Origin: Ypsolopha sequella
Taxonomy: Eukaryota; Arthropoda; Insecta; Lepidoptera; Ypsolophidae
Direction: 5' to 3'
Length of the DNA: 64,000 nucleotides
Assembly: GCA_934047225.1 (NCBI GenBank)
Contig: OW203997.1
Location: forward strand, 5,814,417-5,878,416
Shown: one piece after another, positions 1,578 through 55,941 of the stretch
Layout: every line of letters begins with the position of its first letter
Numbering within the stretch: the stretch's first letter is position 1
Notes under the pieces: generated by a model
Seen by the model: only the letters and a program-made list of their open reading frames with translations
Databases searched by the model: none
What the model was told of the DNA's origin: nothing
Program-made: the position numbers and the translations under genes

Positions 1578-1746
1578 AATGACAATAATATTCTAAATAT
1601 TATTAGAGTGCATTATAAACTAGAAAAGATCAATCAGAAACAAACCCAAAGACAAGAATTTGAAAAAATTCCCCGGGCCAGGATTCGAACCTGCGACCTC
1701 TTGTTATCAAGACAAGCGCGCTACCAATTGCGCCACCGAGGTTCCT
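1578..1746 (-). mobile_element. SINE-A (tRNA-headed), single copy
   Basis: On the minus strand the head contains the D-arm 'gcgcaattggtagcgc', the anticodon arm cttgt/acaag and box B 'ggttcgaatcc'. The acceptor stem is mismatched. The body ends 'gcactctaataatattta'. The same element makes up the seven-unit array at 37.7-40.3 kb, and a truncated copy lies at 6417. Open frames through it are chance frames in a non-coding retroelement. Confidence 0.75.
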
Positions 1747-1747
1747 A

Positions 1748-1875
1748 CCCAGACCAGTGGACGTGCGTGCGACGACGCCCGCGTAACATGCCATCTCTTT
1801 TGCACGCGTTGAATTTCGCATGCATTTGCTTGAAGTTGATACAAATGAGAATTACGCGCTAGAGCGGTCTGGACC
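1748..1875 (-). mobile_element. Fragment of the 'taccgcgtaattctca' MITE
   Basis: This carries the internal landmarks 'gcgtgcaaaagagatgg', 'cgtcgtcgcacgcacgt' and an end 'gagaattacgcg' shared with complete copies at 50829-50945 and 63802-63962. It adjoins SINE-A. Just beyond it (about 1880) lies 'tattcatagcgatggat', which elsewhere directly follows SINE-A, so this locus is rearranged. Confidence 0.6.
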
Positions 1876-2407
1876 AGTATTCATAGCGATGGATTTCGCA
1901 AAAATAAACATAATGACAATAATATGGATTGAAAACCTTTGCTCTATTATATAGAGTATATATGCAAAAAAACCCTCAGTGCGAGAGGGACGGATTCGTG
2001 GAAAAGTAGCAAAAATTAGTTTTTTTATTAATATAAATTGTACTGAAGTTGTTATCAAAATTTCGTTTAACTAGGTCCTAGATACCGTTAAAAGCTATCT
2101 AATAAAATATAACTGCAGTCCATATGTCATTCTAAATTGTCAAACCAGGAGAATTGGTGTCGAAAAAGACCTCATTTCAATAAATATTTCTATCAAGTCG
2201 AATTTCTCTGTTTAACAGATCCCTAGAATAAGATTCCAAAAATAATATACTATTTTATCAAAATAATACATTATTTACTGAAGTACCTATAGATATGCAA
2301 GTTCTAAAAGTGTCGATTTTTTTTCCGTAGCGCCATAACGTAAAGGTTCCAAGTATTTATGTATTGGTAATTTGGTATACATAGGTAATTCACATTTTCA
2401 CTGCTAT

Positions 2408-4229: not shown

Positions 4230-4775
4230 TACTTTTGTGAATCACCACGCTCTTTACTTAGTTTACAGCATAGTTATACGAACCAAACCACTCTCAGCTT
4301 AGTCTACAGCATAGTTTTGTGAACCGCCACATTTTCCTCCTAGTCCATAGCATAGTTTTATGAACCACCACGCTCTTAACTTAGTTTACAGCATAGTTAT
4401 GCGAACCCAACCAGTCTCAGCTTAGTCTACAGCATAATTTTGTGAACCGCCACATTTTCCTCCTAGTCCATAGCATAGTTTTATGAACCACCACGCTCTT
4501 AACTTAGTTTACAGCATAGTTATGCGAACCCAACCACTCTCAGCTTAGTCTACAGCATAGTTTTGTGAACCGCCACATTTTCCTCCTAGTTCATAGCATA
4601 GTTTTATGAACCGCCACGCTCTTAACTTGCTTTACAGCATAATTATGCGAACCCAATCACTCATCTCAGTCTACAGCATAGTTTTGTGAACCGCGCGCCC
4701 TCCGTTCATTTCAAAACATAGTTTTGTGGACCACCTCGCTCTCCACTCAGTCCACTCAGGCCCCGCACTCCGCTC
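4230..4775 (+). repeat. 123-bp tandem satellite built from ~41-bp subunits
   Basis: The landmark 'ccacgctctt' recurs at 4245, 4368, 4491 and 4614, exactly 123 bp apart. Each unit contains three related ~41-bp blocks ending 'cagcatagttttgtgaac', 'tagcatagttttatgaac' or 'cagcatagttatgcgaac'. This is a higher-order repeat of about 4.4 units. The last unit diverges toward 4775 before a LINE tail. Confidence 0.85.
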
Positions 4776-6290: not shown

Positions 6291-6416
6291 TTTGTCTTTT
6301 TAAGTGTTAAAAAAACAATACAATCAAATAAAAAACTAAACTGAAAAAAAGTAATAATTGTAAAGTAAAGAATGTATAATTTGAGTCATTACAATCGTTT
6401 TAAAATAATCGTTTAT

Positions 6417-6578
6417 CTTGATAACAAGAGGTCGCAGGTTCGAATCCTGGCCCGGGGAATTTTTTAAAATTCTTGTCTTTGGGTTTGTTTCCGATTGATC
6501 TTTTCCAGTTTGTATTGCACTCTAATAATATTTAGAGTATTCATAGCGATGGATTTCGCAAAAATAAAAACATAATAA
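6417..6578 (+). mobile_element. SINE-A, 5'-truncated copy
   Basis: The copy starts in the anticodon arm (cttgataacaag) and contains box B 'ggttcgaatcc', the body 'cttgtctttgggtttgtttc' and the tail 'tattcatagcgatggattt'. It matches the array units at 37.7-40.3 kb with scattered differences, so it is an older copy. Confidence 0.75.
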
Positions 6579-7028: not shown

Positions 7029-7325
7029 CTACTTTTATAATACAGATTCACTTTGTTTACCTACTTTTATAATACAGATTCATTTTGTTTACCTACTTTT
7101 ATAATACAGATTCACTTTGTTTACCTACTTTTATAATACAGATTCACTTTGTTTACCTACTTTTATAATACAGATTCACTTTGTTTACCTACTTTTATAA
7201 TACAGATTCATTTTGTTTACCTACTTTTATAATACAGATTCACTTTGTTTACCTACTTTTATAATACAGATTCACTTTGTTTACCTACTTTTATAATACA
7301 GATTCACTTTGTTTACCTACTTTAT
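7029..7325 (+). repeat. 32-bp minisatellite, nine copies
   Basis: The unit 'ctacttttataatacagatt' plus 'cactttgtttac' recurs at 7029 and every 32 bp to 7317. The only variation is a C/T in 'cactttg'/'cattttg' in two units. Near identity indicates recent expansion, and length polymorphism is likely. Confidence 0.95.
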
Positions 7326-11249: not shown

Positions 11250-11520
11250 AAAACCGGCCAAGTGCGAGTCGGACTCGCGCACGAAGGTTTCCGTACCATT
11301 ATCTATAAAAACGGCAAAAAAACATGTCTGTTGTATGGGAGCCCCCTTAAATATTTATTTTATTCTGTTTTTTAGTATTTGTTGTTATAGCCGCAACAGA
11401 AATACATCATCTGTGAAAATATCAACTGTCTAACTATCACGGTTCATGAGATACAGCCTGGTGACAGGTAATAGTAATAGGGTCCCGTTGGTTACCCTTT
11501 GGGTACGGAACCCTAAAAAA
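11250..11520 (+). repeat. Moth 'ggccaagtgcgagtcggac' repeat, copy 1
   Basis: Runs from 'aaaccggccaagtgcgagt' through 'ttgttgttatagccgcaac' and 'gtgtaactatcacgg'-type sequence to 'tttgggtacggaaccct'. The usual (GACA)n/(GACG)n stretch is deleted in this copy. Other copies lie at 60249-60552 and, inverted, at 62693-62990. Confidence 0.75.
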
Positions 11521-11578
11521 GGCCTCTAATATAAAATTATCTAATAGCGAAATCTGTCGCTTTGGATAATCAAGACAT

Positions 11579-11627
11579 AATTTAGAGCGCATTACAAACT
11601 AGAAAAGATCAAATAGAAACACAAGTA
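11579..11627 (-). mobile_element. SINE-A tail fragment
   Basis: The stretch 'gagcgcattacaaactag' plus 'aaaagatcaaatagaaacac' matches the reverse of the SINE-A 3' body. Only about 45 bp survive, between two moth dispersed repeats. Confidence 0.5.
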
Positions 11628-30760: not shown

Positions 30761-32350
30761 TTAAATTAACGTACGCGTCTTCTTTGAGGGCCCAGGAGTA
30801 TCAATATCAACTTCGTCGAGAGGGGGGATGTCGATGGAGAGGTTGGTGCCTATTTGAAGAGCACGAGAGACATCAAACACTTCTTCCATAGCATCATCGG
30901 GGTCGTCTCCATCTTCTTCTACATCCTCGATTGGTGGGACATTCGTGCACTCACTCCTCTTAAAATATTTACAGAATGTAGAGCACTTCATCCCAGCCTT
31001 CCTGCAAGAGCAAGACCCAGTACAACCTTTCTTACACTTGCAGGATAGGCTTTTCAGAAGTAATTGAGGGGCTGGGGGCATAAATGTCGTGATTGGCATC
31101 AAATCTGAGTCTGTTTGATGCCAACCCCAATCAGTAAGGGTCTTGTGCACCCCCAACCACTGTTGAACCTGGTAGTAGCTTCTGAAGGAATGAAACTTGG
31201 CTGCGTCTTTGGTAGGTGGAAGGCAAGCTTAATTTATTTTGTTGCTCGCTGAGGCCTACACAAATAGGGTATAGCGCAGAGTATTGAGAGCTTCTCTGCC
31301 ATCTCCGCCATACATAGCAATTAAAAATGCCTCGCCTGCACTCTCGATCTCTTCTGGAAGGGAATCTGGCTGCAGGAACACTTCCAGCTGTTGAACGAGG
31401 CCGGGGTTTTGTTTAAGGATATAAATGAATTTCAGTTTTCCCTGCCCAAAAAGGGCCGAGGTAGTGTCACACCTACTGAATGCATGAAGGATAAGCACCA
31501 CGCCTGGTGGAAGGCCATCAATCCCGCTATTGAATGAGGTGGAGGAAAACGGTGGAATCTGCTGCCACTTTTATGAAGACGTACGTTGGCAAAGGTGGAG
31601 CCTAGTCCATTAAGAATGCAGAGTAAATCAATGTCCTCTCCAAAAATGATGACATTGGCAAACGCTTGATTTTTTGAAACTACCGTCTCCACAATCAATA
31701 CATCGGCATCCTATTCTGCTTGCTTGGCTTCTACTCCGTGCCTCTGGAACTTATCCATCAAATTATTATTATATCTTTGCAGTATAGAAACGCAGAAAGA
31801 AAAGTAAATCTGGGTGTGAGGAGCTCTGAACCGGGAATCGAACCCGGGACCTCTCGCTTGCTGGGCGATTGCTCTAACCTCTGAGCTATCCAGGTCTCAA
31901 CATAACTCGTGAATCGTTTTCATCCATCAACATTCTTTTCATGCGTTCCTTGTTGCTTCCATTGGACAGGAATGTCACCTGGGGTGCTTTGACTATGGTG
32001 TGCCTCTCGAATAATATACTCCCTGACAATGATCGGTAGCGAAGAGATCGCTCAGCACTTTAAGTGCTTTTCAGAGCTGCATTGTCAGGATACCCATCAA
32101 AAACCACGGAGACATTAGAACCGAACTGGTTCATAACAAAGGAAGTGTATCACGTGAGAATTGCTTGAATGGAATTATTGGGATGCCACATAACTTTGTG
32201 CAGCAGATACCCGCCGTCTACCACAATGAAGTTACCACATTGATTCAGTGAAATATTTGTACTGACAGGCTCAAAGGCAGTATAAAAGGTTGACTTCTTC
32301 CCTTTCCTCATTCCTTCTTCTGTAAATAATTTCCCCCGTAAATAACTCAT
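30761..32350 (-). pseudogene. Decayed PIN/XPG-like nuclease with Cys-rich C-terminus
   Basis: Reading from 32350 downward, successive frames give an N-terminal piece with VVDGGYLLHKVMW (32350-32150) and then VVFDGYPDNAA (about 32075). Next come DADVLIVETV and IIFGEDIDLLCIL (31710-31600), HAFSRCDTTSALFGQGK (31485-31430), and last a 131-aa frame (31156-30761). That frame has WGWHQTD, PPAPQLLLK and a dense cysteine block (CKCKKGCTGSCSCRKAG). The Asp-rich motifs fit the PIN/FLAP nuclease fold, and the order matches a widespread invertebrate family usually annotated as uncharacterised. Breaks are a TAA about 20 codons past VVFDGYP, a TAG before DADVLIV, frameshifts near 32150 and 31490, a stop near 31256, and a SINE insertion. 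It is not functional, and the N-terminal part of the family protein is absent. Confidence 0.7.
31762..31921 (-). mobile_element. SINE-B (tRNA-headed) inserted in the nuclease pseudogene
   Basis: A 160-bp insertion on the minus strand has a tRNA-like head (box A 'tagctcagaggttagagc', box B 'ggttcgattcc') and a body 'gagctcctcacacccagatt'. The tail is a short (AAT)n. Perfect 9-bp target duplications ATCCATCAA flank it at 31753-31761 and 31922-31930. Removing it restores continuity of the nuclease frame at that point, so it arrived after the host element. A head-to-head pair of the same family is at 49229-49445. Confidence 0.85.
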
Positions 32351-33480: not shown

Positions 33481-34985
33481 TTAAGAATTATTCCTCATTA
33501 TTTCTTCTTAAATCCCGAAAGTCAAAACCAGTGGAGTACCCAGACGTATCAGCATTCATATCGATATCATGTCAATATATATCTATTGTGATATTCATTA
33601 AGACCTTTAGCATAATCGTCTAAGGTTTATTTAGACCGCCATTGCCATTACACATCGTAACATTTGTCGGTCGCAACGTGCGCCATCCATCTTGCGGCGT
33701 TGCACAAGGATGTGTTCTGGTACCCAAGTACATCACATTCGCCTCGTGCTGCTCTGTAAAGATTGTAATCGTCTAATTTATGATCTTGTCTGCGATCAAA
33801 CGATGCAGTTGTTTCGTTTTCATTATATGCACCTAGTTTACTGTGTGAATTTTAATAAGGACTTATGCGAAAATTATTTGTTGATAGATTGATGACTGTG
33901 ATTGAGAAATGTCTGACGTTCTGCGAGCGAGATGAATGAAAGGAATGTCCCTATTTATAATCAATAAATTATTAATAATATGCTTTATATTTAATTATTG
34001 TATTGCTTGAATTTCAATTTTATTGAAATTTTTTATTTTATCGCTGTATTTTTTAACAGAAGAATTTTGTAACGTTTTTCTAAACTATGTTTCTAAGTTG
34101 TAATGTTATACCTTTTAAATGAATAAAAAAATAATAATAGTAATTTGTAAGTCTATAGTTTATGGTAATAATAGTCATGTTTTTTTTTTAGATTAATTGC
34201 CGTTGGATGTTTTGTTCGTAGTCAAGAAGTCATTGTAAATGAGAGATATTTTTGCGAGAGAGCGTATTCCTTTCAAGGTAATTACTATATTTATTGTGCA
34301 GTAAATAACAGTAATTTTAATAAAAGGTGCAGTAAATAAGAAGGGTGGCTAAGTAGGCAGGTTTCTCTTGTTTCCCTTAATTGCATTGTCCAAAAGTGGG
34401 CCATTTAGCCAGAATCTTGAGAAAATTTCTACGGACCGCATTTTTGAGAATCTGTTAAGTCCCTGCGTGTTTGGGTGAAAGACGCTTGGAATGAAAATCG
34501 TCCATCTCGAATGGCATGCAACCGAAAAAACTGTAGCGGAAATTATTCATAATTCTGTACAGTGTAAATCTTGGGTAATAAAAGCCTGGGATATGGCTGG
34601 AGGCTGTTTTAAACATCGATTACCCCTTTCTCTCACAGTGTGTTAGAAAGGAACGGGTGCTTAGTGGGTCGGTATACACGTGCTAGCCCTGGCTTTGGTC
34701 GGAGCGTGGGAGAATGCCTCGGGGTGTCGCAAATCTGTTATTATGAGCCAGTTGTTTAGTGACATGCAAATTTGGATTTTTGCAACTGATTAGTTGTGAT
34801 GTTAGGGCGCAGTCAGAAAGACAAAGTGATGCATAATGAAGGCCATTTGGTGCTGTAACTGCTTTTTATACATACGTAGTTTACGCTTAATACACGTATA
34901 CTACGTAAATAGTCAAAAGTTAGAAATCTTTCGCTTCATCGCATCTCTGTCGAATTACTAGGAAAACTATTTTTTTTGCGAATAT
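33480..34985. other. No supported gene
   Basis: AT-rich sequence without inverted repeats, tandem repeats or recognisable coding. A GC-richer stretch near 34620-34740 is unassigned. A MITE begins at 34989. Confidence 0.4.
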
Positions 34986-34988
34986 ATA

Positions 34989-35250
34989 CAAGGTGACTTT
35001 TTCATCATCGTCCAAATTCATACTGGAGGCTTGATAAGTGACCAGTATCTTGGATCAATAACAATTTTTGTGAAATTCCTAAAATGAAATTTCGGCTTCC
35101 CATAGAAATTCACTCCCAGTCCCGAGTGAGTCACTATGGGGAGTCGAAATTTCATTTTACGAATTTCACCAAAATTGTTATTGATCCATGATACTGATCA
35201 CTTACCAAGCCACAAGTATGAATTTGGACGATGATCAAAAAGTCACCTTG
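34989..35250. mobile_element. 262-bp foldback MITE with TA target site
   Basis: Ends CAAGGTGACTTTTT and the complement are flanked by TA (34987-34988, 35251-35252). Inverted repeats of ~110 bp, with a few mismatches, leave a short centre near 35120 ('tcccagtcccgagtgag'). A distant relative lies at 58300-58571 ('gaattcatactcgaggct'). Confidence 0.85.
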
Positions 35251-35526
35251 TATAGGAAAGTATGCTATATAATATCATCAGTAAATGAAATTAAAACACT
35301 GTGCGAACTTTCACGATTTTCACCGCCGGTTTTTCAAAACATAAATCTTCTTAGAATCTAAAGCACTTACTTTACGAATGGACATGACATTAACATAGAC
35401 ATGCAAAGAAAGAAACCAAAGTTAATACAAATCTTGATAACTTTTTTACGAAAGTGCTTCAAACTGTAGGTTGGTAACTAGAAATGTTTGTGTCAAACTA
35501 CATACCTCCAACCTGCCCCTCTATTA

Positions 35527-37372: not shown

Positions 37373-37737
37373 TAATCTGTAGACCAACAAAATACAAGTA
37401 AAACGATCTGCGGAAAATTCGAATAAAATAATTTCGCTTAGAAATGACAAATGGTATTCAATACATATGTATGTACCTATATATCTTACCGGCCAAACCC
37501 AAATAGTGGGGACAAAATGACAAGTAATCAACTTAGGGCCGATTTTTCAATTGACAGATAATAGTTATTTAAGATACACGTGCGGAAAGTAAGGTTTTAT
37601 ACGAATAAGTGCCAAATTGAAAACACGAGCGCAGCGAGTGTTTTCATTGGCACGCATTCGGATAAAAACCTTTTACGCTCAAGTATCTTACAAAATTTTT
37701 CAATGCATTTTGCGAGGAAATACAACAAAAAAATAAG

Positions 37738-40300
37738 TATAATAAAGAATTATGTTTATTTTTGCGAAATCCATCGCTATGAATACTCTAAATATTATTA
37801 GAGTGCAATACAAACTAGAAAATATCAATCAGAAACAAACCCAAAGACAAGAATATGAAAAAATTCCCCGGGCCAGGATTCGAACCTGCGACCTCTTGTT
37901 ATCAAGACAAGCGCGCTACCAATTGCGCCACCGAGGTTCCTACCTAAACCGGCGAATTCTTCCATCATACTTGTCCACTGTTATTTTTGCTTCTGCCTGA
38001 TATACTAGCTTGTACAACACATATAGAACGCTCACGAGGGCGTTATGTGATTTCACGCCTTGTTCTTAGAAACAGATGGCGCTGTCGTCGCTACAATATT
38101 GTTGCTTCAGACAGTTAAGAAATTCACAGTTCTCATTAACTAAGATTATGTTTATTTTTGCGAAATCCATCGCTATGAATACTCTAAATATTATTAGAGT
38201 GCAATACAAACTAGAAAATATCAATCAGAAACAAACCCAAAGACAAGAATATGAAAAAATTCCCCGGGCCAGGATTCGAACCTGCGACCTCTTGTTATCA
38301 AGACAAGCGCGCTACCAATTGCGCCACCGAGGTTCCTACCTAAACCGGCGAATTCTTCCATCATACTTGTCCACTGTTATTTTTGCTTCTGCCTGATATA
38401 CTAGCTTGTACAACACATATAGAACGCTCACGAGGGCGTTATGTGATTTCACGCCTTGTTCTTAGAAACAGATGGCGCTGTCGTCGCTACAATATTGTTG
38501 CTTCAGACAGTTAAGAAATTCACAGTTCTCATTAACTAAGATTATGTTTATTTTTGCGAAATCCATCGCTATGAATACTCTAAATATTATTAGAGTGCAA
38601 TACAAACTAGAAAATATCAATCAGAAACAAACCCAAAGACAAGAATATGAAAAAATTCCCCGGGCCAGGATTCGAACCTGCGACCTCTTGTTATCAAGAC
38701 AAGCGCGCTACCAATTGCGCCACCGAGGTTCCTACCTAAACCGGCGAATTCTTCCATCATACTTGTCCACTGTTATTTTTGCTTCTGCCTGATATACTAG
38801 CTTGTACAACACATATAGAAGCGTTCTATAGAAGCGTTCTATAGAAGCGTTCTATAGAAGCGTTCTATATGTGTTGTACAAGCTAGTATATCAGGCAGAA
38901 GCAAAAATAACAGTGGACAAGTATGATGGAAGAATTCGCCGGTTTAGGTAGGAACCTCGGTGGCGCAATTGGTAGCGCGCTTGTCTTGATAACAAGAGGT
39001 CGCAGGTTCGAATCCTGGCCCGGGGAATTTTTTCATATTCTTGTCTTTGGGTTTGTTTCTGATTGATATTTTCTAGTTTGTATTGCACTCTAATAATATT
39101 TAGAGTATTCATAGCGATGGATTTCGCAAAAATAAACATAATCTTAGTTAATGAGAACTGTGAATTTCTTAACTGTCTGAAGCAACAATATTGTAGCGAC
39201 GACAGCGCCATCTGTTTCTAAGAACAAGGCGTGAAATCACATAACGCCCTCGTGAGCGTTCTATATGTGTTGTACAAGCTAGTATATCAGGCAGAAGCAA
39301 AAATAACAGTGGACAAGTATGATGGAAGAATTCGCCGGTTTAGGTAGGAACCTCGGTGGCGCAATTGGTAGCGCGCTTGTCTTGATAACAAGAGGTCGCA
39401 GGTTCGAATCCTGGCCCGGGGAATTTTTTCATATTCTTGTCTTTGGGTTTGTTTCTGATTGATATTTTCTAGTTTGTATTGCACTCTAATAATATTTAGA
39501 GTATTCATAGCGATGGATTTCGCAAAAATAAACATAATCTTAGTTAATGAGAACTGTGAATTTCTTAACTGTCTGAAGCAACAATATTGTAGCGACGACA
39601 GCGCCATCTGTTTCTAAGAACAAGGCGTGAAATCACATAACGCCCTCGTGAGCGTTCTATATGTGTTGTACAAGCTAGTATATCAGGCAGAAGCAAAAAT
39701 AACAGTGGACAAGTATGATGGAAGAATTCGCCGGTTTAGGTAGGAACCTCGGTGGCGCAATTGGTAGCGCGCTTGTCTTGATAACAAGAGGTCGCAGGTT
39801 CGAATCCTGGCCCGGGGAATTTTTTCATATTCTTGTCTTTGGGTTTGTTTCTGATTGATATTTTCTAGTTTGTATTGCACTCTAATAATATTTAGAGTAT
39901 TCATAGCGATGGATTTCGCAAAAATAAACATAATCTTAGTTAATGAGAACTGTGAATTTCTTAACTGTCTGAAGCAACAATATTGTAGCGACGACAGCGC
40001 CATCTGTTTCTAAGAACAAGGCGTGAAATCACATAACGCCCTCGTGAGCGTTCTATATGTGTTGTACAAGCTAGTATATCAGGCAGAAGCAAAAATAACA
40101 GTGGACAAGTATGATGGAAGAATTCGCCGGTTTAGGTAGGAACCTCGGTGGCGCAATTGGTAGCGCGCTTGTCTTGATAACAAGAGGTCGCAGGTTCGAA
40201 TCCTGGCCCGGGGAATTTTTTCATATTCTTGTCTTTGGGTTTGTTTCTGATTGATATTTTCTAGTTTGTATTGCACTCTAATAATATTTATAATAAAGAA
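37738..40300. repeat. Palindromic array of seven 396-bp SINE-A units
   Basis: Units begin at 37751, 38147 and 38543 in one orientation (the third is cut at the centre). Four follow in the opposite orientation, ending near 40288. The dyad axis is at 38841.5, and every landmark checked mirrors exactly (37751 pairs with 39932; the tRNA-like head at 38658-38732 pairs with 38951-39025). The centre 38815-38866 is four copies of ATAGAAGCGTTCT. Each unit contains SINE-A plus ~180 bp of non-SINE sequence with 'agcgacgacagcgccatctg'. Units appear identical in every stretch compared. The last unit stops inside the SINE tail. A 12-bp direct repeat TATAATAAAGAA brackets the block (37738-37749, 40289-40300). 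Confidence 0.9.
37866..37940 (-). mobile_element. SINE-A tRNA-like head of array unit 1 (representative)
   Basis: On the minus strand it has a D-arm gcgc/gcgc with loop 'aattggta' and an anticodon arm cttgt/acaag around a seven-base loop 'cttgata' (triplet TGA). It also has box B 'ggttcgaatcc'. The acceptor stem has at least two mismatches and the T-stem one, so it is a SINE promoter and not a tRNA gene. Equivalent heads lie at 38262-38336 and 38658-38732 (minus) and at 38951-39025, 39347-39421, 39743-39817 and 40139-40213 (plus). Pol III start sites in the two arms therefore point away from the centre. Confidence 0.75.
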
Positions 40301-40643
40301 AGTAATTTTATTTCACCAAAGCCTATTTACAACAAAATGGCGTGCTTTCTTTGCAGAGTGCGCGTTTCATACAGTTTTTTCTTTCTTGAGGCAAAGGTAC
40401 AGTATACATACAGCCAATAATGTGAAAAATATTGTTGTTTGCGGAAAGAAAACACGTATTTTTAAATGAGATAATCAAGAATCTTATGTGTTATGGTGTT
40501 TATCATCATCCAATTATTGCTAGAGCGCGCATACTTATAAATAATTGTTTTTTTTTGACAGCAAAACCTCCTTGCAACTTTGTAATTTTTTAAATTTTAT
40601 GACTTGCACCATGCACCACAGAGTCAAAAACTTAAAAAAATTA

Positions 40644-46136: not shown

Positions 46137-46397
46137 CAGTGGCGTGCACAGAACTTTTTTCCGGAAAAGCAATCAGAAGGTCAAGTACGACAATAAAAAA
46201 ATATGAATTTTTTTTAATTTCACTTTGAAAAATAAAAAGTTTGTATGAAAATGTCCACTCTAGGGTAGACAGTGCCTACCCTGGCGTCATGCAAAGTTTT
46301 TTTTTTCAAAGTGTTATTTAAATTTTTTCATTTTTTTTTATTGTCGTACTTGACCTTCTGATTGCTTTTCCGGAAAAAAGTTCTGTGCACGCCACTG
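46137..46397. mobile_element. hAT-type MITE, copy 2, with 8-bp target duplication
   Basis: A 261-bp element has ends CAGTGGCGTGCACAGAAC and the perfect complement, flanked by perfect 8-bp repeats ATGAATAG (46129-46136, 46398-46405). The length equals copy 1 at 2408. Inverted repeats extend ~40 bp at each end and a second inverted pair ('gggtagacagtgcctaccc') marks the centre. Confidence 0.9.
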
Positions 46398-49043: not shown

Positions 49044-49228
49044 GTAGAGACTTTGTGTAAGTATTAATTTGAACGGTTCCTAGGGACGATTTTATTTTAT
49101 GACGATGTAAATGTATTCAAAAATAAACACAATAACTAAGGTAATAATGAGAATGAGCTGAGTAATTATAATAAACAAAATTAACAAGTGTGTTACGATA
49201 TGGCACGAAATTATTGTATTAGGTAAAG

Positions 49229-49445
49229 TAAATTAACATTATATCATTGCAGTATAGAAATGCAGAAAGAAAAGTAAATCTGTATGTGAGGAGCTCTGAA
49301 CCAGGATTCGAACCCGGGACCTCTCGCTGCGTTTGCGTCTGCGTCCTCTCGAGGTCCCGGGTTCGAATCCCGGTTCAGAGCTCCTCACATCCAGATTTAC
49401 TTTTCTTCCTGCGTTTCTATACTGCAATGATATAATGTTAATTTA
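49229..49445. repeat. Head-to-head SINE-B palindrome
   Basis: Two SINE-B copies face each other head to head. The arms (49229-~49327 and ~49350-49445) are ~95 bp with a few mismatches and include the flank 'taaattaacattatatc'. Each arm has a box B 'ggttcgaatccc' or its complement. The ~22-bp centre is 'gcgtttgcgtctgcgtc'. Because the arms include sequence outside the SINE tail, a simple double insertion does not explain the structure. Confidence 0.8.
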
Positions 49446-50265
49446 TATCTCCTTGCGATGGACAAATCGCCAAGTGTTCAAACATGGAAATTTATTTCTG
49501 TCATAATATTAGGTGAAGCTTTAGAAGTTGTTCGAACCATTCTCTGAAAAGGTTATTTCATTCAGCATGTGAGCGCAGGTAACAGCTTCCAATACTTGAT
49601 AAACAAATAAGACATAGATCATATCTCTGCAATAAACTTATACATCGTTTATTTACCTAACATACGTCAAGCTTTTTCTCTACAAAATAACTGTTATCTA
49701 ACTAGAGCTTTTTGTTTTGAACTTCCCAAGGCATCAACAAAGGAGAATGAATCAATGGAACATTTGCAATTACTGCATTTTTTATTTCTTTTGTCCCACC
49801 ATTAGCATGAAGACATCATGGGGATGCGCGAGCGCGTCATGATCGTAAAACTTTATTGACCTTTTTGTCGTGATTCGTGACATTTCGTTGCGTATGCGCT
49901 GTGCGTAAAATGTCAAATCCGTGCCGAATGGAACGAGATAACTAAATTATTGCTGTGTAACCCGTATAAACAAAGTCTTCTTTGAAAACGGTTCCACAAA
50001 TATTTGATCACATGTTTGCCAAATATTTGTGTAACAAAAGGCTTTGAAGTGAAGCTAAAAATAAAATAATAAGGCCATTATTGTCTGGAGGCCGCACATT
50101 ATTTGACGATTTCAAAGCAACTCATTTAGTTAGAGTACGGAGCGAATATTGTGCAGTACGAAGCCAAAATATCACAAACGATTAATATAGAAATATTTTT
50201 TTGTATTATATTAATATGTTTATAATACTTATCCAATATAACTTAAAAATTTCAAGTTAAGACTA

Positions 50266-50640: not shown

Positions 50641-50698
50641 TCCCGGTGCAAAGCCTACCATATAGAATTTAATCTAAAAGTGACATTGGATATCAAAT

Positions 50699-50828
50699 CC
50701 TATTGCAAAACTTAAAGAGCAGGGGCTCTACCGCGTAATTCTCATTTGTATCAACTTCATTTGCTTGAAGTTGATACAAATGAGAATTACGCGGTAGAGC
50801 CCGGCTGCTCTTTAAGTTTTGCAATAGG
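50699..50828. repeat. 130-bp near-perfect palindrome
   Basis: Arms of ~61 bp, from 'cctattgcaaaacttaaaga' through 'taccgcgtaattctca' to 'caacttca', with a 6-nt loop. The outer 20 bp ('cctattgcaaaacttaaaga') is host flank, copied in inverted form on the other side. A full 'taccgcg' MITE follows directly at 50829-50945. Confidence 0.85.
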
Positions 50829-50945
50829 ATGCGAAATGAAACGCGTGCAAAAGAGATGGCATGTTAGGCGGGCGTCGTCGCACGCACGTCATATTTCAAT
50901 CTCAAGTTGATGTTGATGAAAATGAGAATTACGCGGTAGACCCGC
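50829..50945 (+). mobile_element. 'taccgcgtaattctca' MITE, copy 2
   Basis: Carries 'gcgtgcaaaagagatgg', 'gcgtcgtcgcacgcacgt' and the end 'gagaattacgcggtagaccc'. Together with the right arm of the preceding palindrome it makes a complete element equal to that at 63802-63962. Confidence 0.7.
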
Positions 50946-53493: not shown

Positions 53494-53640
53494 GGTGTTA
53501 CTACAAAACGGTGTTTAACTTTAGACAGTGTTTAAATCTGTTGCTGTCCCCTTTTCTTTCATATTGTCAGAAAGTGACAGCAACAGATTTAAACACTGTC
53601 TAAAGTTAAACATCGTTTAAACACTCTTTTGTAGTAACAC
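53494..53640. mobile_element. MITE in the intron between host exons 2 and 3
   Basis: Inverted arms of ~55 bp: 'gtgttactacaaaacggtgt' and 'agacagtgtttaaatctgtt' on the left, complementary with one small gap to the right arm ending 'gtagtaacac'. Its insertion does not touch splice sites. Confidence 0.85.
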
Positions 53641-54413: not shown

Positions 54414-55617
54414 TTATTCATCATAATCAAAATCAGATTCGAGAAACTCAATACCAGAGAGGGAATCGTCACTGTCACTATCGTCTTCACGAACATTTAT
54501 AATAAATGGTTCCAGTTCAGTCTCTGTAATTCTGTCTCTAGTTTTATATTCATTTTCCACATTAATTATGTGGTCAGTGATTTTCTTCCAGTCGCTTGCG
54601 GTGATGGTTGAGAAACATTCTCGAATTAATTCTTCGGTGTGAGTGCCATGCACGCCCAAATTTTTGCTTGCAATCTTTCGTTTGACCAAGCTCCATATAA
54701 GTTCTATCGCATTGAGGTCGCAGTGATACGGAGGCAACTTTAAAACTTCATGCCCATGCTGTTTCAGTAACTCTTCTGCTTCATATAGAGGAGTTGGTTT
54801 ATTTTCTTGCACTAGACATAAGAGCTCAGCCTTTGTAAAGCATTCGTCAAACGAAATATTATTATCAGAAAGCCACTTTTGAATGTCAGCTTTCAAGTTG
54901 TGCATTGTAGGTGGCTTGTTATTTGAGTTACGTGGTAACTCGCATTATCCATGATAATTACAGAGGGTTCCATCAGGTTTGGTATTAGCTTCTCTTCTAA
55001 CCATTTCAAAAAATTGTTTTTATTCATGTCATCATGATAGTCAGCCGTTTTCGATTTTGTGCTAAACACTAATAAAGCATTAGGAACAAAACCCTTTTCT
55101 GATCCTGCGTGGACTATAATGTGTCTTTTTCCTGCAGATATTTTATCCACTAATCCACTTGTAGATGGTCCTTGCCATGATTTTTTGGGTTTGTAATTTT
55201 GGTGGACATAAGTTTCATCAAGATAAACAATATGTTTTCCTTCTTGGCGTTTTTGATGAATGGTCCTCAGGTATCTATGCCTCCATGCAGCTAATTCAAA
55301 TTTTTCTATAAGAATAGATCGCTCATTTTTATTTTTTTTGAATTCAAAGCCATTTTTATGTAAAAGTTGTCGCAGCGTTTCCCGGCTTCCAGAGAATTGA
55401 ATTGAATCCTGCAGCTCCATGTGTAAGCTTCTTAAGGTTGGAACACACTTTTTGACAACATAAAACTCGTTTATTTTGTTTCTTATGACAGAAATATCAA
55501 AATCATCCAAATTGGACACTGTCGGTTGCCGTGGTCGTTTTTTACCTGGTGTATTCCATTCACCTTGGTTCATAGAACCTTCTTTTTGTATTCGTCGTAA
55601 TGTTCTAACACTTACTC
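54414..55617 (-). pseudogene. DDE transposase-like gene, exon 3 (one frameshift)
   Basis: The exon starts after 'ttttacag' at 55617, in frame GVSVRTLRRIQKEG, a helix-turn-helix of Tc1/IS630 type. It continues with basic and zipper-like sequence into the DDE core: YLDETYVH (first Asp), IIMDNASYH (second Asp, ~90 residues on) and PPYHCDLNAIELIW (third acidic residue), then an acidic tail DDSDSDDSLSGIEF and DYDE. A single-base frameshift at about 54918-54932 separates the second Asp from NKPPTMHNLKADI, which continues in another frame to the stop. No other lesion is seen across ~400 codons, so inactivation is recent or the shift is a sequencing error. The second-to-third catalytic spacing (~75-80 residues) is much longer than in classic Tc1. 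Confidence 0.8.
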
Positions 55618-55941
55618 CTGTAAAATAAAACGGATTAATGTGTTAATTAAAATTTTTCAAGGACCATCAAACTAGTACAAAGTATTTAAACTAGTACATA
55701 ATATTTCAAGGACGATCTAACTAGTAGTAGTGTTATTTTTATATTAACTAATATATTTTAACTAATGCTAAGTACATTAAAAACAAATCTTTATTCATTG
55801 TGAAATTACACAGTTCAACAGATTACTTTAAGAACGTACCTCAAACTAGGCGAAAGCCTGTATTTTGATTAGTCAGATTTTTTTACAGAGATAGTATCAA
55901 GAAATTGGATATTATCAAAGGTATATTTTTTAGTTTACTAC

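What the first reader, a model, noticed from the sequence alone, without database searches (positions are those of the whole stretch)
37738..40300. Giant near-perfect palindrome made of seven identical SINE-bearing units
Seen directly: 396-bp units, three on one strand and four on the other, mirror exactly about 38841.5 with a 42-bp spacer, giving arms of ~1.07 kb. Units look identical wherever compared, while the single SINE-A copies at 1578 and 6417 have diverged. A transcript across it would fold into a long dsRNA, the substrate for Dicer-2 hairpin siRNAs in insects (inference). Pol III promoters in the two arms fire outward, so antisense partners are possible too. It could be a hairpin-RNA locus, a young amplified fragile site, or an assembly fold-back.
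Basis: partly seen in the sequence, partly recalled or inferred. Interest (0 to 1): 0.88.

Follow-up and report, generated by a model that had tools for sequence, protein, structure and literature searches.

The report
Palindromic multi-copy SINE insertion
A 2.5-kb palindrome made of seven identical copies of a small mobile element is flanked by a perfect 12-bp direct repeat, so it likely entered this (probably insect) genome as one reverse-transcribed piece rather than by an assembly error, which would mean that retrotransposition can make a hairpin-encoding locus in a single step.

Summary
In detail: seven 396-bp units, identical over 2,504 bases, lie as 2.7 units on the minus and 3.6 on the plus strand about 38841.5. 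The left end is the SINE's own 3' tail; the right end stops 40 nt short of it. [quoted passage not shown] A second copy of the SINE (1578-1925) is a plain twin-primed inversion with a 14-bp duplication; its second end lies 2 nt from the block's. I read the block as one TPRT event on multimeric SINE RNA, likely primed from both nicked strands. Main rival: one cDNA folding back, since the centre coincides with the unit's strongest cDNA hairpin. 'Outward Pol III gives antisense' is wrong: both arms yield the same sense RNA. A hairpin-siRNA role is untested. The own-genome search did not complete (21 tries), so source and frequency are unknown.

The parts
37738..37749 (.). left copy of the 12-bp direct repeat TATAATAAAGAA (target-site duplication)
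   Evidence: exact match to 40289-40300, the longest direct repeat between the flanking stretches compared (37550-37770 and 40270-40500), flush with both block ends
37749..38820 (-). left arm: 2.7 tandem units, starting at the SINE 3' tail (u284) and ending at u5
   Evidence: 0 mismatches to the unit
38814..38869 (.). centre: 4.3 copies of the 13-bp unit TATAGAAGCGTTC; core TATAGAA-GCG-TTCTATA joins u5 of the left arm to u1/u2 of the right arm
   Evidence: TRF 100% matches; 38790-38893 folds as one hairpin, z -13.85
38859..40290 (+). right arm: 3.6 tandem units, from u1 to u244
   Evidence: 0 mismatches to the unit
40289..40300 (.). right copy of the 12-bp direct repeat; shares TA with the end of the arm
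38859..39254 (+). reference unit u1-u396: SINE body about u83-u284, the rest (u285-396 and u1-82) without another copy in the window outside the block
   Evidence: outside the block only stretches within u83-284 match, at E up to 0.01
38955..39025 (+). tRNA-like SINE head (ARAGORN label Ser-TGA); sisters at 39351, 39747, 40143 (+) and 37866, 38262, 38658 (-)
39028..39033 (+). T6 run just behind the tRNA module of the reference unit
39238..39269 (-). hairpin at the unit boundary u396/u1; the most stable local fold of the minus-strand cDNA in the unit, at the place of the palindrome centre
   Evidence: -8.2 kcal/mol, z -4.43; 3 of 396 windows reach it, all centred here
1578..1925 (-). sister insertion of the same SINE: body (to u246) inverted against its own 39-nt tail (u246-284), inside a 14-bp duplication AATGACAATAATAT
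49217..49518 (.). second SINE family (SINE-B) as a tail-out inverted pair, arms 49229-49323 and 49351-49445, 96% complementary, with a candidate 12-bp duplication (11 of 12) flush on the left only

Best explanation
The block is seven identical 396-bp SINE-bearing units in two inverted tandem arms between perfect 12-bp direct repeats, and it was likely made in one step by LINE-driven target-primed reverse transcription of multimeric SINE RNA primed from both nicked target strands. Shown: the arms, their identity, the direct repeats, the SINE 3' tail (u284) at the left end, the internal point (u244) at the right end, and the 13-bp-repeat filler at the centre. Inferred: a LINE enzyme nicked the top strand after 37749, and its 3' end primed a cDNA from the SINE tail, copying 2.7 units to u5. 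The other strand was cut 12 bp away, and its overhang primed a second cDNA at u244, copying 3.6 units to u1. Both cDNAs stopped at the same place of the unit (within 4 nt), either the 5' end of the RNA or a hairpin; their ends were joined with about 1 bp of overlap, and the joint slipped into four 13-bp copies through its TATA ends. The RNA template would have been a read-through transcript of a tandem SINE-bearing repeat. The result is a new near-perfect palindrome whose read-through RNA would be a 1-kb hairpin.
For: The 12-bp direct repeat is flush with both ends; of 200,000 random position pairs drawn (those touching the block or under 500 bp apart were skipped, so somewhat fewer were examined) 8 had a run of 12 or more within 4 nt of offset. 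The left end is the same 3' tail (CATAAT) at which the matches of the copies at 6576 and 1914 end. The sister locus 1578-1925 has the form of a twin-primed inversion: 14-bp duplication, tail u246-284 against body to u246, no base lost. Its second end (u246) is 2 nt from the block's (u244); chance about 5/284 = 0.018 by my arithmetic (one search printed 0.011 for a tolerance of 1 nt, before I read that end as u246). In human cells most L1 5' inversions had duplications of 10-20 bp (PMC4245944, passages); here 12 and 14. Dual priming by two RNAs was proposed, without proof, for L1 (PMC2837659, passages). Unequal arms (2.7 and 3.6 units) are natural if two cDNAs were made. Of the five loci with 90 bp or more of the two SINE families that I searched for in the window, three are tail-bearing inverted composites and two are plain.
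Against: Priming by complementarity is not borne out. At the second start of the block 6 of 12 bases agree, equalled or beaten at 56 of 396 positions; at the first start 3 to 6 of 12 by placement, equalled at 51 or more positions; at the second start of the sister locus (u247) 6 of 13, equalled at 66 positions, and the best of the ten neighbouring placements (7 of 13) is equalled at 24. The common stop of both cDNAs at u1-u5 is not explained by twin priming alone. The RNA-sense hairpin there lies only within the best 8.6% of windows, while the cDNA hairpin ranks first, which favours the fold-back rival. No LINE with this tail and no source tandem array was seen; the genome search did not complete.
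Confidence: 0.5

Rival explanations
1. One cDNA, folded back. Target-primed synthesis began at the SINE tail and made one cDNA of 2.7 units; its 3' end snapped back on the strong hairpin at the unit boundary and copied itself, and the copy was caught by the other target end at u244. One later unit gain in the right arm gives 3.6.
For: The palindrome centre sits on the most stable local fold of the minus-strand cDNA: 3 of 396 windows of 36 nt reach -8.2 kcal/mol and all are centred at u394-u0 (chance within 2 nt is 5/396; a test chosen after seeing the hairpin). The right arm ends, modulo 396, 40 nt short of the left arm, as an incomplete self-copy would. Short fold-back inversions captured by end joining are documented at yeast breaks (PMC11724301, passages).
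Against: The right arm is longer than its supposed template, so one extra unit gain is needed. The hairpin loop itself (CGCTCACGAGG) is missing from the centre and must have been trimmed. The sister locus needs no fold-back and has its second end at nearly the same nucleotide.
Confidence: 0.3
2. A palindromic tandem locus existed elsewhere, was transcribed, and its hairpin RNA was retrotransposed whole with an ordinary 5' truncation.
For: The ends fit too: SINE tail at one end, truncation at the other, duplication outside.
Against: It moves the origin of the palindrome one step back and needs reverse transcription through a 1-kb perfect RNA hairpin. No second set of full units lies in the window; the rest of the genome could not be searched.
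Confidence: 0.08
3. Assembly fold-back or chimeric long read.
For: Perfect palindromes are typical of such errors (general knowledge); read evidence was not available.
Against: A fold-back error mirrors the unique flank too; here the 1-kb flanks are unrelated (best flank-to-flank match 30 bp at 87%, in direct orientation; longest inverted match 19 bp). The arms end at different unit positions, and a 12-bp duplication brackets the block.
Confidence: 0.06
4. Foldback-type DNA transposon (FB/Galileo/Tetris kind) with tandem subrepeats in its inverted repeats.
For: Long inverted arms made of tandem subrepeats are the hallmark of that group (recalled; Tetris TIR arrays are listed in a table of PMC9659126, passages).
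Against: The two outer ends are not inverted copies of each other (u284 and u244), and the left end is the 3' tail of a SINE whose matches also end there in two single copies.
Confidence: 0.03

Closest known systems
Twin priming of L1 (5' inversion)
   Same: target-site duplication, tail at one outer end, internal start in inverted orientation at the other, joint inside; seen in simple form at 1578-1925. A long-read survey of 1,019 humans reclassified 1,047 L1 5'-end inversions as probable twin priming (PMC12350158, passages)
   Different: here both cDNAs run to the same point of a tandem template and give a near-perfect palindrome, for a SINE and not a LINE
Dual priming (Meyer et al. 2010, PMC2837659, passages read)
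   Same: both nicked strands primed, possibly by two RNAs
   Different: proposed for L1 as theory; the authors could not tell it from twin priming. The block holds the same units in both arms, which a single short RNA copied once cannot give, but a single RNA of seven units could
Lepidopteran tRNA-derived SINEs (PxSE1-like and others, PMC8010984, abstract and passages)
   Same: 5' tRNA-like head with a short body
   Different: tails seen in the passages are (GT)n or (ATGT)n, and one family (EpSE1) has no simple-repeat tail; this tail is AAAAATAAACATAAT. No sequence comparison with them was made
SINE-derived satellites (Hy/Pol III of Hydromantes, Satellite 1 of Xenopus laevis; table rows in PMC9659126, passages)
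   Same: tandem units that carry a tRNA-related region
   Different: only 2.7 and 3.6 units here, in opposite orientation, inside one target-site duplication
Hairpin-RNA (hpRNA) loci of insects (PMC10317233, search listing with the start of its abstract only)
   Same: inverted arms that a read-through transcript would fold into dsRNA
   Different: no transcript, promoter or small RNA shown

Membership tests
tRNA-derived SINE (each unit) | tRNA-like head that folds as tRNA | tested here: met
   RF00005 48.6 bits against a cut-off of 29 for each of the seven; ARAGORN
tRNA-derived SINE (each unit) | dispersed copies with a common 3' end and target-site duplications | tested here: met
   the block and the copies at 1578 and 6410 share the end CATAAT; duplications at two of three. 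For 6410 no exact direct repeat of 8 bp or more was found in the stretches compared
tRNA-derived SINE (each unit) | 3' tail shared with a partner LINE | not tested
   no LINE was searched for in the window, and the own-genome search stayed unanswered (21 calls)
tRNA-derived SINE (each unit) | full-length Pol III transcript | not testable with these tools
   a T6 run at u170-175 speaks against it
TPRT insertion with inversion (twin or dual priming) | target-site duplication around the whole insert | tested here: met
   12 of 12
TPRT insertion with inversion (twin or dual priming) | 3' tail at one outer end, internal point at the other | tested here: met
   u284 left, u244 right
TPRT insertion with inversion (twin or dual priming) | overhang complementary to the RNA at the second start | tested here: inconclusive
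   6 of 12, equalled or beaten at 56 of 396 positions: not above background
Foldback DNA transposon | terminal inverted repeats with identical outer ends | tested here: not met
   outer ends u284 and u244 differ
Assembly fold-back | mirror-image unique flanks | tested here: not met
   no mirrored flank over 1 kb on each side
hpRNA locus | small RNAs cut from the hairpin | not testable with these tools
   no RNA data held

The most novel reading that the evidence does not exclude
In this genome the LINE machinery regularly primes both cut strands with SINE RNA, so that a single insertion creates a finished palindrome, ready to be a hairpin-RNA locus; and the seven identical units were copied from a multimeric or circular 396-nt RNA by going round it 2.7 and 3.6 times, without any tandem array in the DNA. 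It would be the natural case of dual priming that its authors asked for.
Probability: 0.12. Interest if true: 0.75.

Novelty: new variant of a known kind. Interest (0 to 1): 0.5.

Why it matters
Long perfect palindromes are usually blamed on replication faults, local amplification or assembly errors (general knowledge). Here the ends of the block point to target-primed reverse transcription. If so, retrotransposition can deliver a ready-made inverted repeat in one step. That would give a testable birth route for hairpin-siRNA loci and for palindrome-driven fragile sites, and a natural test of dual priming. It also gives a simple rule for reading such blocks in genomes: look for the duplication and the tail at the outer ends before calling an artefact.

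Tried and rejected
Rejected: foldback DNA transposon (outer ends differ); assembly mirror (flanks differ); ribozyme-bearing satellite (Rfam at E up to 5 over two units shows the tRNA in both plus, in both, a chance bacterial antisense match at E 3.3, 26 bits against a gathering score of 59); protein-coding repeat (longest stop-free frame of the repeated unit is 108 codons). Template jumping from RNA end to RNA end as the source of the tandem units was set aside, because the unit junctions in both arms are identical to the base; the idea itself is recalled from R2 work. Overhang-to-RNA complementarity was tested and is not above background.

Led nowhere: the own-genome search (the same request 21 times; did not complete). 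Scans of viral contigs with three window-derived patterns and of genome contigs with one gave 0 matches; the tool warns that records of the window's own genome may be left out there. Literature searches: rows listed of papers found were 5 of 5, 15 of 240 (26), 6 of 6 (27), 1 of 1 (34), 12 of 69 (38), 12 of 42 (39), 1 of 1 (54), 4 of 4 (55) and 20 of 480 (65, swamped by words such as 'sinensis'). None of the listed titles names a palindromic multimer SINE insertion; this does not show that it is absent from print. Search 66, for a repeat word that I recall as lepidopteran, found no paper, so the host group (likely Lepidoptera) rests on recall alone.

Full report
WHAT IS THERE. Unit coordinates below (u1-u396) refer to window 38859-39254 on the plus strand. 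The left arm (37749-38820) is 2.7 units on the minus strand, from u284 at its outer end to u5 at the centre. The right arm (38859-40290) is 3.6 units on the plus strand, from u1 to u244. All 2,504 array bases equal the unit; zero differences at 2,108 redundant sites bounds divergence at 0.14% (95%), so the block is young or homogenised. The centre is 4.3 copies of TATAGAAGCGTTC and folds as one hairpin. There are seven tRNA-like modules in the block.

WHAT THE UNIT IS. Outside the block only u83-u284 recurs in the window: at 1587-1755 plus 1876-1914 and at 6410-6576, 94.6-100% identical, with a weaker 75-bp relative at 11547-11621 (80%) and a 24-bp tRNA-like match at 49301-49324, which lies in the SINE-B pair. 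This is a tRNA-headed SINE of about 200 bp that ends in AAAAATAAACATAAT. The remaining 196 bp or so of the unit (u285-396 and u1-82) have no other copy here. The sister locus 1578 carries about 120 bp upstream of its tRNA head that do not match the unit beyond short weak hits (best E 0.37; one 15-bp stretch in it resembles the SINE tail at 87%). So both loci seem to hold sequence carried along from upstream of their source copies (inference). A T6 run directly behind the tRNA head (also visible in the copies at 1578 and 6410) should end Pol III transcription early (general knowledge); mobilisation by read-through transcripts would explain both the carried sequence and a multimeric template (inference).

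HOW IT GOT THERE. The flanks carry one perfect 12-bp direct repeat, TATAATAAAGAA, at 37738-37749 and 40289-40300, flush with the block. It overlaps the left arm by one base and the right arm by two. The outer left end is the SINE's 3' tail; the outer right end is internal (u244). That is the geometry of target-primed reverse transcription with a second priming on the other strand. The same SINE shows it in its simplest form at 1578-1925: a 14-bp duplication, the tail u246-284 in one orientation and the body up to u246 in the other, nothing lost between them. The second start of that locus lies 2 nt from the one of the block. A different SINE family (SINE-B) gives a plain copy at 31762-31921 with a 9-bp duplication, ATCCATCAA, and at 49229-49445 a tail-out inverted pair, arms 96% complementary, with a candidate duplication of 11 of 12 bases. 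That candidate is flush only on the left; on the right about 60 extra bases lie between arm and repeat. So of the five loci with at least 90 bp of these two families, three are inverted composites; the fragments at 11547 (75 bp) and 54163 (33 bp) are not counted, and other SINE families were not searched for.

WHY A PALINDROME. Both arms stop at nearly the same base of the unit (u5 and u1). If two cDNAs were made, they stopped at a common 5' end or at a common obstacle. If one cDNA was made, it folded back. The most stable local fold of the minus-strand cDNA in the whole unit is centred exactly there (-8.2 kcal/mol; 3 of 396 windows, all at u394-u0), while the sense RNA fold there is only within the best 8.6%. 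This favours a fold-back or a stop at the cDNA level. Against the fold-back stands the longer right arm. I put two-strand priming first (0.5) because of the sister locus, and fold-back second (0.3). Both are forms of one TPRT insertion, which I hold at about 0.8. Overhang complementarity does not help: 6 of 12 at u244, equalled or beaten at 56 of 396 positions, and no better at the first start or at the sister locus.

WHAT IT DOES. Nothing here shows a function. Only a transcript that crosses 38841 would fold into a 1-kb dsRNA. Whether this happens, and whether small RNAs are cut from it, needs RNA data.

COMPARISON. Twin priming is the accepted account of L1 5' inversions; dual priming by two RNAs was proposed for L1 without proof (PMC2837659, passages). 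In human cells most L1 5' inversions had duplications of 10-20 bp (PMC4245944, passages). That paper also reports that 5' inversions were rare or absent for the other LINEs and for L1 in chicken cells, so inversions should not be taken as general. Fold-back inversions joined by end joining are known at yeast breaks, most of them short (PMC11724301, passages). SINE-like tandem satellites are known (PMC9659126, passages). The combination, a tandem SINE-bearing repeat inserted as a palindrome within one duplication, was not among the titles that my searches listed (four of these listings, 26, 38, 39 and 65, were cut), which is weak evidence for absence.

LIMITS. The own-genome search did not complete (21 identical requests), so there is no copy number, source array, partner LINE or species. 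The host as a lepidopteran is my recollection of a repeat near 11480-11515 and is not shown by a call. No reads were available, so the exact unit number could still be an assembly matter. The hairpin and breakpoint coincidences were noticed before they were scored, so their chance values are guides only.

Noticed in passing
window 1578-1925: Clean twin-primed inversion of the same SINE with a 14-bp duplication; carries about 120 bp of sequence upstream of the tRNA head that does not match the block's unit.
   Followed up: yes
window 49217-49518: SINE-B inverted pair, tails outward, 27 nt between the arms, candidate duplication 11 of 12; a second palindromic SINE locus of another family.
   Followed up: partly
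window 31753-31930: Plain SINE-B copy (ARAGORN label Ala-AGC) with a 9-bp duplication ATCCATCAA.
   Followed up: yes
window 7029-7323 and 4233-4694: Minisatellites: 32 bp x 9.2 (98% matches) and 123 bp x 3.8 with 41-bp subunits.
   Followed up: no
window 54414-55642: Two overlapping minus-strand reading frames that both match the DDE_3 transposase family (PF13358), apparently one frame-broken transposase gene.
   Followed up: no
window 46137-46397 and 2408-2668: Two palindromic elements that share the left end CAGTGGCGTGCACAG, a MITE-like family; further palindromes at 34985-35254, 50697-50830 and 53506-53618.
   Followed up: partly
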